From: Rhizopus arrhizus
Taxonomy: Eukaryota; Mucoromycota; Mucoromycetes; Mucorales; Rhizopodaceae
Assembly: GCA_024220505.1 (NCBI GenBank)
Contig: JAKZZE010000009.1
Location: forward strand, 630,001-694,000
Length of the DNA: 64,000 bases
Reading direction: 5' to 3'
Shown: piece by piece, positions 34,824 through 40,720 of the stretch
Position numbering within the stretch: position 1 is the first letter of the stretch
Layout of the letters: each line of letters begins with the position of its first letter
Notes under the pieces: model-generated
Databases searched by the model: none
What the model was told of the DNA's origin: nothing
The model's input: only the letters and a program-made list of their open reading frames with translations
Made by a program: the position numbers and the translations under genes

Positions 34824-35149
34824 TATACTGTGCTTTAACTATCCACAAGTATAAAAAAGAAAAGAAAAACATGTCAATATAATTAAATAAAAAAGAAGGG
34901 ATCTTTTTTTCTTTCTGAAACAAAAATAACCAGAGCCTGCTTTACCTAAAGTAATTTGAAAAACTAATGTAGAATTTATAAAAATAATTAACTTCAAACG
35001 CGACGTTTAAATATGTTACCTCTTAACACTTGAATAAATGGATTACAATAAACGAAAACTTTCCCTGTCCTCCTTTTTTGTAAAAAAAATTAAAAAAATT
35101 AAGAAAAAATGTAATAAATTGGGAATAGCAATACTTATTTTGTAGTATA
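34824..35149. other. Upstream region of the ZMIZ-like gene up to the transposon edge
   Basis: 326 bp, AT-rich. The transposon's left end lies within this gene's likely promoter region. TA at 35148-35149 is the left target-site copy. Confidence 0.6.
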
Positions 35150-35171
35150 CAGTGTGACTAGTAAATTTTGT
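35150..35171 (+). repeat. Left terminal inverted repeat
   Basis: 22 bp starting CAGTG. It matches the reverse complement of the right end at 19 of 22 positions, including the last 11 bases exactly. Confidence 0.9.
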
Positions 35172-35179
35172 CCATTCTG

Positions 35180-35235
35180 AAAAAATAAACGGCAACTTCC
35201 GAAAAATAAATGGCGGTTACCTAAAAATAAACGGC
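35180..35235 (+). repeat. Left subterminal repeats, 21-bp period
   Basis: Three copies of a 14-bp word (A/T-rich then AAATAAAYGGC) at 35180-35193, 35201-35214 and 35222-35235, spaced exactly 21 bp. Reverse-complement relatives occur at the right end, so they are probably transposase-binding or end-recognition repeats. Confidence 0.85.
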
Positions 35236-35396
35236 ACTACCTGATAGATGTTTAGCTGTTTGCTAGCAAATAATTGTCGCTCTTAAAACTTTACTTTGTC
35301 TTTTTGGGCCGAGTCAAATTGGCGTTACTGAGGGATTATCGTCGGCTATGATGTAAAGGCTTTATTTCTTTCCCTTCGCTCTAACAATTGAATAAC

Positions 35397-36600
35397 ATGA
35401 CAAAAAATACATTTTTTATGAAGATGAACACAATAATACCTACAATAAGGATGGAAAGAGAGGCTCTGACCCGATAGAAGGTGTGTTAACCGAAATCAGT
35501 GATCCAAACGTAGTATTTGAAACCATAACGAGTCAAAAGTCCTATTTGAGTCTCAAACCAGCAGAGAAAGAAACTACTGCAAAAGATTCAACAAAAAAGA
35601 CTATAAAAGTGGTCAAGAAAGCAGCGCCTACAAAGACTACAACTACCAAACCAGAGAGATATTTATTGACTGAATGATCGAGGGTCTTACGGAAAGAGGA
35701 AAAGTGACTTTGCATGCAAAGGATCTTGGAATTAATCCTCGTACTGCTATGCGCTGGTGGGAACACTATCAAGAAACTGGGAAGGTAGCTTACAACAAGT
35801 TGTAAAGAAATCCCAGCTGATCCAACTCACTGACTCCTGATCATGAGCAGCACATTCAACAAATAGTACAAAAAGACTCACAACTTTGTGCTGACAACAT
35901 TATTGATTCTCTGAAATCGCAGTTTGAGGGCTTGAAGATTTCAAAGTCTCAAATGAACCACCACTTGAGAAACAACATGCTCCTTTCAATAAAGAAACCA
36001 ACCTTCGATCCTATGACAAGAAACTCTGACAATAACTTGCAAACGAGATACGAGTGGTTCATGAAGTGGAAATACTCAGATTTGGGTTACACTAAGAACT
36101 GCTTTTTTATTGATGAGGCTGCATTGAAGATAGGCAAACAAAAAAAAAACCTTGCAGGAGGCAAAGAGCAGGCGACATTATTATTGAATAGCCTCCTATA
36201 GAGTACTCTGGTGTGGAGGAGAGTACTCCCATAGAGAACAACAGGCCAGTAGCAAAAGGTACAACTACTGCCCACTTTATAAGATTTATAAACGAGCTTC
36301 TTGATATCATGGACATAGACGAAAGTCTTATGGGTGGATATCTTGTAATGGATTACTGTACTATTCATAAGTCTCATCCAATGATAAGAAAAATTGACAG
36401 TAGAGGTTATAGAGTAATGCACTTACCTCCTTGTTCATCAGAGCTCAACCCAATTGAGCAGTTTTAGGCTAGAATTAAAGGAAGCTCAAACATTGTCGAA
36501 TGAAAACTTATCGAGTCGAAGTGCTGATGGTTATAATCAAATTCTTTACGGCTTCTCTAGTCAAATCATCCACTGTTGTGATAAAACACACGTGTGAACA
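35397..36600 (+). pseudogene. Degraded Tc1/mariner DDE transposase
   Basis: Fragments in three frames make up one transposase. A lysine-rich N-terminus and an HTH-like part (ARTLGINPRT-type, here AKDLGINPRTAMRWW near 35740) are followed by KISKSQMNHHLRNNML near 35940. Then come the first catalytic Asp region (NCFFIDEAALKIG near 36100), the second (GYLVMDYCTIHKSHPMIRK near 36345) and the third (LPPCSSELNPIEQF near 36430). A frameshift near 35674, stops at 35803, 35815 and 36199, lost sequence between the first two catalytic blocks, another frameshift near 36200 and a stop replacing the Trp after IEQF show it is dead. The start coordinate is approximate. Confidence 0.85.
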
Positions 36601-37199
36601 TGCTTTTAAAATCATACTATGATATTTTCATAACACTATATATTTTTAGAATGTAAACCTTGCGAGAATTGATATGATTAAAACAGTTTTATTGGGCTCA
36701 GCAAGGGCCTTTAATGAAGATTTTGATCAGTGAATATATCATTATTATGCTGTGACATTACAAGATGACGGTCCAACATTTTATGATCATCAAGTATGTT
36801 CTTAACATAATTATCATTGAGGTTTGATGAAAAAACATAAAGAACTTGCCACATTCAGACGCTAATAACTTCTCGAGCCCTACCTACTATGTGTAACAAC
36901 TATTCTATGTGAATCTAGAAAACAAGTATCTTCTATTGCAAGTTATTACATGGTGTAAGCTTATTGTAGTCACTTTGCTATTATTAGGTTGTAGCTGTGT
37001 TCGAATAAATCTATATAAATGGGATGGGAGTATTTCCTTTTAACATTTAAATCGATTTCTGGAGACACTTTTTCTTTTTGTTCGTACATTTCACTCATGA
37101 AAATACATTGAAAATGAAAAAAAAGCAAAAGGATTCTTTATTCCCTTCGAACCAAAATAAGCCATCTAACAGCGAAAATGGTAGGCTCCATATCTAATA
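36601..37199 (+). other. Spacer between dead transposase and Fanzor gene
   Basis: About 600 bp inside the transposon with no open frame of note; it presumably contains the Fanzor promoter. An alternative upstream ATG (near 37114, reading MKKKQKDSLFPSNQ) opens a short frame that ends before 37200 and could be a lost or alternative first exon. Confidence 0.5.
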
Positions 37200-40057
37200 A
37201 TGGATCGAAATGTCACTGACCACAAAATTGATACTGTTATAGACTCGTTTGAACTATATGTAGAAAACAACTCAGACGACGACTTCCAACCCGCTGTAAC
37301 AGCTAGGAAAAGAAAAAGTAAGTTGCATTGTCAAACTTGATGTAGGTAAACAGCTAGTCTAACGTATGAAACCCCATCATAGGTAGGGAAAATATTCCAC
37401 AGAGTGGATTACAAAAGAGACTCAAAGGCAAAGGAAAAGCTACAGATTCTGAAGTTACTACTACAAGTAGTACTGGTATCTCTACAACAGATGAAACTAT
37501 CATGTTCAATAAGATCACTCTTGATGACTATGGTCTTGAATATAGCTGTGACGATTTTGATGCACCTGCCGTCAAAAGACCCTTTTTGGGTGAATCAACC
37601 AAATCTGCTTTTCGTATGACCAGATCAACTTCTGCTGCTGTGGAGTCAAGCACAACTGCTTTCAATTCAGCTGCAACTTCTATCAAGTCAAATTTTTGTC
37701 CTGTACCTGTTGACAAGGCAAGTGACATTAAAGAAGGCCCTAAGAAGATAAGCAAGCGTGTGATGACAATTAAAACGACTGTAAAAAATATTTGGAAACC
37801 AGCATATTTACAGCCATTGTATGATTTGGTTCACACTACCAACTTACTAGTTACACATACCTTTGCCTTCACAAAGTACATATATTTACAAGAGCTGGCA
37901 GCAAATGAAAATTTTGCGCTGAACAACTTTGTGACAAAAGATTTCTTTGTTGAAGTTTTTCTGAGTCTTGTTCTCTCAAAGGGTAGAAATAGCTCAAGGC
38001 TGAAGGATACGACCAAAAACTATAGGCGATTGATATCAAGATATAAAGGAGCTTACTTTGAAGACGCTGGTTATACTCCTCAAAGCTTACCATATGCTCA
38101 GCAAATAGCCCTGTACGAGTGTACGAAGATCCAAACGGCCTACTATAATAACATCAAAGCTCATTTTGGAAATAGGCTGCGTGGTTTGATAAACAAGTTA
38201 TTTAAAAAGAAGGAAAAGACAGAGAGTCTCAGAGGAGAAATGCAAGCAAACAAGTCTAGTAGTAAAGCGATAAAAGAAGCTATCCGAAAGAAGATTTATG
38301 GACCTTGCAATAAGGTGAAGCTTGCCATCGCAAAAAAAGAAATGCCTGAAGTTGGTCTTTTAGATGATCAATCAAGAACACAATTAAATGGCTTTCTCTC
38401 AAGCTACCCAGAGGACTACACCTTTCAAAAGAACTCAATTTACTATGACATTATGGCTAGTCCAAAAAACCATCTTAAAGCCTTCTTCAGACTTGCCGAA
38501 TTGTCTGAAGCTGAACAGATGAAACAGTTTGCTTGTTTCCCGCTACGTACCACTTTTATTCCTTGCTACATGACGTTGGATAGCAAAATAATCCATCACC
38601 ATGTTCTCAAGAGCAAAAAGAATCTAAAAACAGGAAGCAAGTTTGAGACATGGGGTGCCGTCGTAGACCTAAATAAAAAGGCGTTCAAGCATCAAGGATT
38701 TCAAAAGTCTTTGCGGTTCCAAGGAACTCTCGAAACCGATGGAGTCGGTGTCTCCATAATAAAGCAAAACACTGATACAAGCAGAAAGTCGCCTAAACCC
38801 AACACTGAAAAGAAAATGGACGGTAATCAAATAGAGCATATTGAAGGATTAGGTCAAGCCGACTTAAAGAGCACTGAAGGCAAGTGCGTCTTGATAGATC
38901 CTGGAAGGCGGGACTTGATGTACTGCATGAAAGAAACCAGCACTGTTGAAGAAAAACAAACACTTATATTTACCAAGAACAACCGCTCAAAATGTTCAAG
39001 GCACTTCAGATATTTAAGAAAGCGTACTCAACCTTTTGTGGTCCAGAAAGCCGAAGTAATCCTTTCTAGATCTGAATCCAACTCTGTAGACTTGAAAAAG
39101 TTTGTACAGTATATTAAAACAAGAGCATCAGTAAAAAAACACCTTGTACGAATATTATGAAAACGAGACAACAAAGTCTAAAGAAACATATTTCCCTGAA
39201 TCCGAATTTGACTTTCGAGTCGACCAAAGATGTAATTTGTATTATGGAAATCTGTTCATAGCAAGAATCCGTGGTTTTTTCCCTCAACCTGAGAATTACT
39301 CTACTGATAGCTCTGTAAAGCCTCAACTGTATGCTACTTACCTACAAACAATGCTACAACAAAAGCATATTTCAGAAAGACTAGATGATAGTGAGAAAAG
39401 CAAAGTTCTAGGGCTGGCAAAAGAGATGTATAGACGACCACAGCAAAGCGATTACAAAAAGATTATCAGTACAGCATTAGAAAAACTACAACTTTTAGCT
39501 TTTCGAAAATTGAAGTTTTCAAGTAAAATCTTCTTTGACCAGAATGATCAAAAATTGGTGCGTAGCTTAAAAGCAAAATTTGGTCAAGATGCTGTCTTAG
39601 TTTTTGGAGATTGGTCCGCCCCTAATGTCAAGTATCAAGAGCCGACAAGAAACAAAGGGTTAATCAGGATGTTAAAGAAGAACGGGTTTGTTGTCTACTT
39701 AATCAATGAATATAAAACGTCTTCCCATTGCCCAATCTGTGAAAATGAATTAGAAAAATTCAAAACCGTGCCAAACCCTCGTCCTTATCAACAGAAAAAG
39801 AATCCAGACGTGCTATGCAATGGTTTGCTGAGGTAATCCAAAGAAGAAGAAGAAGAAAAAATAGATTAATTCTTGATTACTAACGCAGTACTAGGTGTAA
39901 GAGTCTCTCGTGTCTTGAACAACAAACCACAGGAATAAAAAGAAGACTTTGGAATCGCGATCAAGCAGCCGTATTGAATTTTCTCAAGATCCTAAATAGT
40001 TTGAGAAAGACTGGCGAACGCCCTAGCCTTTTCACCAGAAAATATCCTTTAGACTGA
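37200..40057 (+). CDS. Fanzor (eukaryotic TnpB-like) putative RNA-guided nuclease
   Basis: Model with four exons (37200-37317, 37383-39130, 39177-39832, 39895-40057), 894 aa. The N-terminal 100 residues are disordered and Lys/Ser/Thr-rich. A helical REC/WED-like region follows, with KNYRRLISRYKGAYFEDAGY and a basic KKKEKTESL stretch. RuvC-I is VLIDPGRRDLMYCM (Asp about 545). The RuvC-II region is VLVFGDWSAPNVKYQEPTRN, with the acidic residue displaced to YQEP (Glu about 777), as in Fanzors with a rearranged active site. A zinc finger (CPIC, then LLRCKSLSC) and RuvC-III WNRDQAAVLNFLKIL (Asp about 863) end the domain. Third intron has TACTAAC. The 46-bp second gap (39131-39176) may be an intron or a frameshift. 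Confidence 0.88.
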
Positions 40058-40183
40058 TTATCTTTAAGTAGAACAAAAGTAGGAAAATCACAAAAAATTA
40101 TCCACCAAGGTTATCGCTTTGGTCATTTAATACAGGTATTCCATTAGAACAAGTACAAAGCGACAGCAATAAATGTACTAAAC

Positions 40184-40260
40184 GAAATTTTCATTTAGGT
40201 TAGTGACATTTATTTTTCTGGAAACGACATTTGTTTTTTGCTAAACGAAGTTTATTTTCT
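40184..40260 (-). repeat. Right subterminal repeats, 21-bp period
   Basis: Four degenerate copies begin at 40184, 40205, 40226 and 40247, each 21 bp after the last (GACATTTATTTTT-like). In reverse complement they resemble the left-end word AAATAAAYGKC. Confidence 0.85.
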
Positions 40261-40268
40261 TTAAACCA

Positions 40269-40290
40269 ACAAAATTTACCAGCCCCACTG
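40269..40290 (-). repeat. Right terminal inverted repeat
   Basis: 22 bp ending CACTG, followed by TA. Reverse complement pairs with 35150-35171 with three mismatches. Confidence 0.9.
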
Positions 40291-40292
40291 TA

Positions 40293-40720
40293 AATGGAAC
40301 GTCATCAAACCATCCGCCAATAAAAAATGTAATATTTCATTTGTTTTTTCTTAAAAACTGATATTGTAGAAGGTAATGGTGTGAATATGAATAATAATTT
40401 TTAAGTTGAAATGATAACAGACAAAAAGATTCGATACCTGTACGACTTAATAACAAAAGGAAACTGTTGTGATTACAAAGGTTTCGCAATAATAACTACC
40501 ATTCCGTTTATTGATAAATCAGTTTTAAGCGGTTCATCGATGAGTTGAGCAAATGCAACATAAGGTCACAAGAAATAGTATTATAACGAATGGGGGTTTA
40601 TATCAAATTGGAGTAATAAGACGGAACAGGTGAAATATGTATTGATGATTCTGCTTTTTAAAGATATTGAATACTTTTTTTTTTACACTTTACATTGTTT
40701 TATTAAATCAATAGCGTACT
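40293..40720. other. Transposon right flank to PSMA6 3' end
   Basis: 428 bp with no gene. The first 15-20 bases would be the natural guide sequence of the neighbouring Fanzor if it works like other omega systems. Confidence 0.45.

What the first reader, a model, noticed from the sequence alone, without database searches (positions are those of the whole stretch)
35150..40290. A mariner element carrying a Fanzor, an RNA-guided nuclease candidate
Seen: TA-flanked inverted ends, a broken DDE transposase and a rightward gene whose protein has RuvC-I (IDPGRRD), a displaced RuvC-II acid, a zinc finger (CPIC...RCKSLSC) and RuvC-III (WNRDQAAVLNF). Known: Fanzor proteins are eukaryotic TnpB relatives carried by DNA transposons and act with omega RNAs. 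Inferred: this copy encodes a guided nuclease that could home or retain its element. It is a complete passenger in a defined element, with both edges in the window.
Basis: partly seen in the sequence, partly recalled or inferred. Interest (0 to 1): 0.93.

Follow-up and report, generated by a model that had tools for sequence, protein, structure and literature searches.

The report
Decayed Fanzor-carrying mariner in Rhizopus-like fungus
This is one broken copy of a many-copy fungal jumping gene that carries a Fanzor, a known kind of RNA-guided DNA cutter, and the family's insertion sites show a one-sided motif that may be the footprint of that cutter at work.

Summary
Window 35150-40290 is a Tc1/mariner element holding a broken DDE transposase and a rightward Fanzor1 gene, a close relative of the solved, active Parasitella PpFz1 (E 1.4e-210 and 6.1e-97). 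An intact sibling's 18 best protein matches are all Rhizopus, 72-93% identical.

It is not a complete passenger. The Fanzor frame is shifted near 39130-39145, between RuvC-I and RuvC-II; the six best-scoring siblings read straight through there.

The kind is known: Fanzor1 in mariners (2013), PpFz1 structure and activity (2024). Seven copies compared show purifying selection on Fanzor (median dN/dS 0.33); none of 22 left-end loci holds a full transposase frame.

Newer: insertion sites are lopsided. Just outside the TA duplication another TA stands at 32 of 43 left ends, 5 of 39 right ends, and 3 of 10 left ends of a Fanzor-less mariner. This puts (T)ATA directly before the sequence that the right flank would supply as guide, in register with PpFz1's ATN motif. 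It suggests guided retention; no empty site was found, and an asymmetric left terminus is not excluded.

The parts
35148..35149 (.). left TA target duplication
35146..35149 (+). TATA at the left junction; candidate TAM (ATA = 35147-35149)
   Evidence: PpFz1 TAM 5'-ATN-3' from PMC11423790 (passages; section 4)
35150..40290 (+). Tc1/mariner element carrying Fanzor1, 5141 bp
35150..35239 (+). left inverted end (CAGTGTGACTAGTAAATTTTG...)
   Evidence: arms 35148-35239 / 40201-40292, 72%
35480..36510 (+). remains of a mariner transposase (HTH 35674-35802, DDE_3 36213-36464) in several frames with stops; outer limits approximate
37200..37317 (+). Fanzor exon 1
   Evidence: weak alone, E 1.1; GT donor; exon 2 of a sibling continues the PpFz1 alignment
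37383..39832 (+). Fanzor exon 2, with a frameshift near 39130-39145
39895..40057 (+). Fanzor exon 3 (second half of zinc finger, RuvC-III WNRDQAAVLNF)
   Evidence: E 1.2e-16 to PpFz1 chain 1207-1255
40201..40290 (-). right inverted end; probable omega-RNA scaffold region (RNA not shown)
   Evidence: position by analogy with SpuFz1
40291..40292 (.). right TA target duplication
40293..40312 (+). flank that would serve as guide, by analogy
   Evidence: inference from SpuFz1

Best explanation
The window holds a decayed copy of a many-copy Tc1/mariner family of a Rhizopus-like fungus. The family carries a PpFz1-type Fanzor1 with the RuvC insertion (FRI) that in PpFz1 binds cyclophilin. Shown: the element, its ends, the Fanzor homology, the broken frame here, open frames in siblings, purifying selection on Fanzor, and the lopsided insertion sites. 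Inferred: siblings make Fanzor; each copy's right end plus flank gives an omega-RNA whose guide is the right flank; the TAM is (T)ATA at the left junction. After a related transposase cuts the element out, Fanzor would cut the empty site or an empty sister chromatid, and repair from a filled copy would put the element back. Copies inserted in the orientation that places ATA before their own guide would be kept. The window copy cannot supply the nuclease as assembled but could still supply a guide RNA in trans.
For: Protein: PpFz1 E 1.4e-210, 6.1e-97, 1.2e-16 and SpuFz1 E 3.6e-23, 2e-13, 0.0019 for the three window pieces. PpFz1 residues R448 (stacks on the TAM end) and P614/P616 (cyclophilin loop) align with R and PQP here; the numbering offset of 409 is my inference from the alignment and the residues that PMC11423790 names. 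Selection: median dN/dS 0.33 over 21 pairs of 7 copies, range 0.19-0.48. Lopsided sites: fetched copies, TA outside the duplication at left 24 of 27, right 3 of 24, p 2.8e-8; whole-genome pattern, left 32 of 43, right 5 of 39, p 1.3e-8 (this set overlaps the first). Elements with the same ends and no Fanzor hit: 1 of 6 ends, p 0.011. Fanzor-less mariner: left 3 of 10, right 0 of 6; left against Fanzor left p 0.001. TA sites in the window preceded by TA: 451 of 5271.
Against: T at -2 is at least as strong as A at -1 (38 of 43 against 36 of 43), and PpFz1's published TAM does not ask for that T. For A at -1 alone the difference from the same-ended Fanzor-less elements is not significant (36 of 43 against 3 of 6, p 0.09). 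Eleven of 43 left ends lack the outside TA. No empty site was found, so a left terminus that carries an extra TA is not excluded. No RNA was seen; predicted folds of the right end are no better than shuffled sequence (z -0.84 and -0.77), and its last 20 columns (0.98 mean identity) are not set apart from the other windows (0.90-0.985).
Confidence: 0.72

Rival explanations
1. Asymmetric terminus: the left end of this subfamily is really TACAGTG while the right end is CAGTG, so the extra TA is element sequence and says nothing about Fanzor.
For: The TA at -2/-1 is common in fetched copies (24 of 27) and both its letters are about equally strong. No empty site was found.
Against: The two inverted ends align from CAGTG inward and the transposase should cut both alike (family knowledge). 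Elements with the same ends and no Fanzor hit have ordinary flanks (1 of 6 ends with TA). It does not explain why A-T-A falls in PpFz1's ATN register.
Confidence: 0.3
2. The transposase itself prefers TATA in one orientation; Fanzor has no part in it.
For: Mariners prefer certain TA contexts; the control mariner has A before the left TA in 6 of 10 and, read outside-in, before the right TA in 3 of 6.
Against: The control preference is similar on both sides, as far as 10 and 6 ends show; this family's is strongly one-sided. A two-fold symmetric transpososome should not read orientation (family knowledge).
Confidence: 0.15
3. The Fanzor is an inert fossil passenger.
For: The window copy is frameshifted; many other copies carry stops inside the match.
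Against: dN/dS about 0.33; the six best-scoring siblings have a long open exon 2; PpFz1 cuts DNA in vitro (PMC11423790, section 4).
Confidence: 0.1

Closest known systems
PpFz1 of Parasitella parasitica (PDB 9cf0-9cf3; PMC11423790, section 4 read, passages elsewhere)
   Same: Same domain order including the FRI insertion and its PQP loop; window pieces and an intact sibling match along nearly the whole chain
   Different: Two Parasitella proteins are 65% and 60% identical to an intact sibling; the window copy is frameshifted; TAM and RNA of this family not measured
Fanzor1-carrying Mariner elements such as PGv-1, PUl-1, PUl-4 (Bao and Jurka 2013, PMC3627910; section 7 read, passages elsewhere)
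   Same: Mariner ends, TA duplications, Fanzor1, in some a mariner transposase
   Different: The mucoralean elements assigned to a superfamily in the passages seen (ROr-4, PBl-3, MCi-4) were MuDr-type; this one is a mariner
SpuFz1 / Spu-1 elements (PMC10432273; section 7 read, passages elsewhere)
   Same: Two conserved bases upstream of the left repeat which with TA match the TAM CATA; many copies; no transposase found within the element's repeats
   Different: Motif here is TA + TA; distant protein; a broken transposase is still present here

Membership tests
Fanzor1 | Sequence relationship to characterised Fanzor1 proteins | tested here: met
Fanzor1 | D ... [TS][TS]xx-C4 zinc finger ... RD motif (as given in the PMC3627910 abstract passage) | tested here: met
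   IDPGRRD, TSSHCPIC...RCKSLSC, NRDQAAVLNF in window pieces and PpFz1 alignments; split over two frames in the window
Fanzor1 | Pfam TNB zinc ribbon (PF07282) at its cut-off | tested here: not met
   16.5 bits against 26.3; intact sibling's exon 14.7. The zinc finger is split by an intron, so a single exon scores low. I do not count this Pfam score as a defining feature; it is told because it was tested
Fanzor1 | Intact single reading frame in this copy | tested here: not met
   window copy frameshifted; six best-scoring siblings open there
Fanzor1 | omega-RNA-guided DNA cleavage | not testable with these tools
   no RNA or activity data
FRI-bearing Fanzor (PpFz1 group) | FRI insertion in RuvC with the cyclophilin-binding PxP loop | tested here: met
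   window 39144-39833 aligns over its whole length to chain 977-1206 including PQP
Tc1/mariner | TA duplication and inverted ends | tested here: met
   in the family TA at 27 of 28 left and 24 of 25 right ends
Tc1/mariner | DDE transposase of the mariner kind | tested here: met
   PF13358 3.3e-10 and tblastn alignment to an intact 443-aa mariner frame of the same genome (L039 rows); broken in this copy

The most novel reading that the evidence does not exclude
The one-sided (T)ATA at the left junctions is a genome-wide footprint of RNA-guided retention in a eukaryotic cut-and-paste transposon: among mariner insertions in either orientation, those that place a Fanzor TAM directly before their own right-flank guide have survived.
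Probability: 0.45. Interest if true: 0.65.

Novelty: new member of a known kind. Interest (0 to 1): 0.42.

Why it matters
What Fanzors do for their transposons in their hosts is unsettled; the SpuFz1 paper discusses possibilities and calls for host genetics (passage). Mariners join like ends to symmetric TA sites, so a strong orientation bias of insertion sites calls for a second agent. A family with 143 pattern-matched ends in one genome, and apparent Fanzor-less relatives with the same ends, allows a direct comparison. Rhizopus records hold many relatives in which filled and empty sites could be compared.

Tried and rejected
Empty sites: joined flanks of 8 of the 10 copies joined were searched; single flanks of 14 left and 14 right ends were searched. 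None gave an unfilled site; each search scored only its best 40 candidates. Many flank matches to repeats stopped 7-17 nt short of the element; for one repeat (R2) these gaps proved to be LINE-type target duplications. C5:41340 matched a left flank up to the junction but seems to carry a degraded left end (read by eye).

A shared transposase frameshift was considered and dropped: the stretch has the same length in 24 of the 25 left-end loci listed.

omega-RNA by folding: no signal at the right end. A hairpin at 40095-40145 (z -2.46) lies well inside the element and was not pursued.

A second Fanzor lineage as a TAM test: its left boundary could not be fixed.

Structure prediction was not run, because solved PpFz1 covers almost the whole protein.

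One search used hand-typed flanks and stopped with an error; superseded. One search timed out. In one search I first set aside 8 left-type ends; only 6 (three elements with two C-type ends) are justified, so 32 of 43 replaces 32 of 41, and the Fisher and binomial values are replaced by those. Pairing of those ends into elements rests on facing orientation within 9 kb only.

Full report
What is there. The window is C41:630001-694000 of a 50.26 Mb, 41-contig genome. The element runs from 35150 to 40290, between TA duplications at 35148-35149 and 40291-40292. Its ends, CAGTGTGACTAGTAAATTTTG at the left and CAGTGGGGCTGGTAAATTTTG read inward at the right, lie in a 92-nt inverted pair of 72% complementarity. 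These ends recur: a 201-nt left-end query finds 53 stretches with 40 of 83 candidates scored, and a pattern for the ends finds 143 places with up to 3 mismatches, against none for the reversed pattern.

Transposase. Pieces between about 35480 and 36510 match a helix-turn-helix below its cut-off (E 4e-4) and DDE_3 (E 3.3e-10). They are spread over frames with stops. Of 22 left-end loci inspected, none has an uninterrupted transposase frame the length of the 443-aa frame of an intact mariner of the same genome; the longest is 265 aa, in L042. One family copy outside those 22 (C12:1765423) has a 318-aa open frame and was not examined further. Other mariner frames of up to 443 aa and more, less similar, exist in the genome and could act in trans; that is inference.

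Fanzor gene. Exon 1 37200-37317, exon 2 37383-39832 and exon 3 39895-40057, with GT..AG introns. Exon 2 pieces match PpFz1 with E 1.4e-210 and 6.1e-97 and SpuFz1 with 3.6e-23 and 2e-13. Exon 3 matches PpFz1 with E 1.2e-16 and SpuFz1 with 0.0019. Exon 1 is weak alone (E 1.1), but its match ends at chain residue 428 and a sibling's exon 2 takes up the chain at 430. Residues that PMC11423790 names in PpFz1 for stacking at the TAM (R448) and for cyclophilin binding (P614, P616) align with R and PQP; the numbering offset is my inference. So the FRI insertion and its loop are present. That paper reports finding FRI only in Parasitella and Rhizopus (passage).

The window copy is broken. Two overlapping frames, 37502-39160 and 39144-39836, are needed. 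The six best-scoring siblings (L010-L015) have one frame of 748-838 aa across that point. A sequencing or assembly slip cannot be excluded without reads.

The family in its genome. The first exon 2 piece finds 101 stretches, with 79 of 221 candidates scored. Most belong to a close set, many with stops; a second lineage lies at about 42% and further rows at 33-41%. Among seven close copies, window copy included, 21 pairwise dN/dS values have median 0.33 (range 0.19-0.48; for the window copy L009 only the first 455 codons were compared). That indicates purifying selection in the recent past. A protein search with the L015 frame listed 77 proteins among 8000 scored candidates. The first 18 are from Rhizopus arrhizus or R. 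delemar (72-93% identical), two Parasitella proteins are at 65 and 60%, and Helicostylum, Gilbertella, Mucor and other Rhizopus follow.

Lopsided insertion sites. In the fetched copies, 27 of 28 left and 24 of 25 right ends have the TA duplication. Just outside it, TA stands at 24 of 27 left and 3 of 24 right ends (p 2.8e-8). The right set includes one end of a related subfamily (L102). A whole-genome pattern that left the six bases next to the duplication free printed letters for 90 of 143 places: 51 left-type and 39 right-type by the base after CAGTG. With TA present (49 and 39), the outside TA occurs in 33 of 49 against 5 of 39 (p 3e-7). Setting aside six ends of three elements with two left-type ends gives 32 of 43 against 5 of 39 (p 1.3e-8). 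The two data sets overlap.

Controls. The three elements with two left-type ends had no Fanzor hit within their span, checked against a hand-copied list of the hits on those two contigs in the capped outputs. TA stands outside 1 of their 6 ends (p 0.011; for A at -1 alone 3 of 6 against 36 of 43, p 0.09). A mariner without Fanzor (ends CACTATTTTCAG; 11 copies tried, of which 10 left and 6 right ends could be read; L109 inspected whole) has 3 of 10 and 0 of 6. In the window, 451 of 5271 TA sites are preceded by TA.

Reading. In SpuFz1 elements two conserved bases stand upstream of the left repeat, CA, and the TAM is CATA; the guide is the flank beyond the right repeat (PMC10432273, section 7 and passages). 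PpFz1's TAM is ATN. Here A + TA is ATN in the same register, directly before the right-flank guide in the inferred empty site. So the placement fits a Fanzor TAM, and the one-sidedness fits retention of insertions that Fanzor can restore. Against it: T at -2 is as strong as A at -1 and is not part of the published PpFz1 TAM; 11 of 43 lack the TA; no empty site was found; and a subfamily-specific extra TA in the left terminus would look the same. I hold the identity as near certain and the retention reading as somewhat less than even.

What is known. Fanzor1 in mariner elements has been described since 2013 (PMC3627910, section 7 read). Searches for 'Fanzor' alone and with 'Parasitella', 'Rhizopus', 'target site duplication / TAM / left end', 'homing / retention / empty site / gene conversion' and 'Mucorales / mariner / transposable elements' (open-licence PMC papers only, 40 of 82 shown for the first) listed no paper on lopsided insertion sites of a Fanzor mariner. 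I judge this from titles and abstract starts, not from full reading. The SpuFz1 motif is the same principle. I therefore file this as a new member of a known kind.

Noticed in passing
L056, L057, L044 (left ends) and L036 (right end); also L040, L067, L101, L102, L129: A LINE-like repeat is inserted exactly at element ends: target duplications of 12-14 nt abut the element (TA|CAGTG), shown by a second copy in 4 of the 7 flanks tested, two of them with one mismatch; not found for L040, L067 and the right flank of L011, where the fetched flank may be too short. Repeat R1, whose outward 419-aa frame looks LINE ORF1-like by eye (untested), also ends about 14 nt from mariner ends. Recalled precedent: Tx1L into Tx1D in Xenopus.
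   Followed up: partly
L081:1980-3800 and seven similar-scoring places: A second Fanzor lineage with a 606-aa frame, about 42% identical to the first, in a different element; 5 of 7 right ends read CACTATA plus variable flank.
   Followed up: partly
whole genome: 43 matches to the TNB zinc ribbon (PF07282), 22 of them with the same 186-aa open frame and similar scores: perhaps a third, recently multiplied Fanzor group.
   Followed up: no
window 40095-40145: A hairpin within the 3' part of the element folds better than shuffles (z -2.46, 3 of 200 shuffles as good).
   Followed up: no
L035 and L104 (C34, about 24 kb apart): Two duplicates of one insertion site; in the second the right TA and a few bases beyond are missing (by eye).
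   Followed up: no
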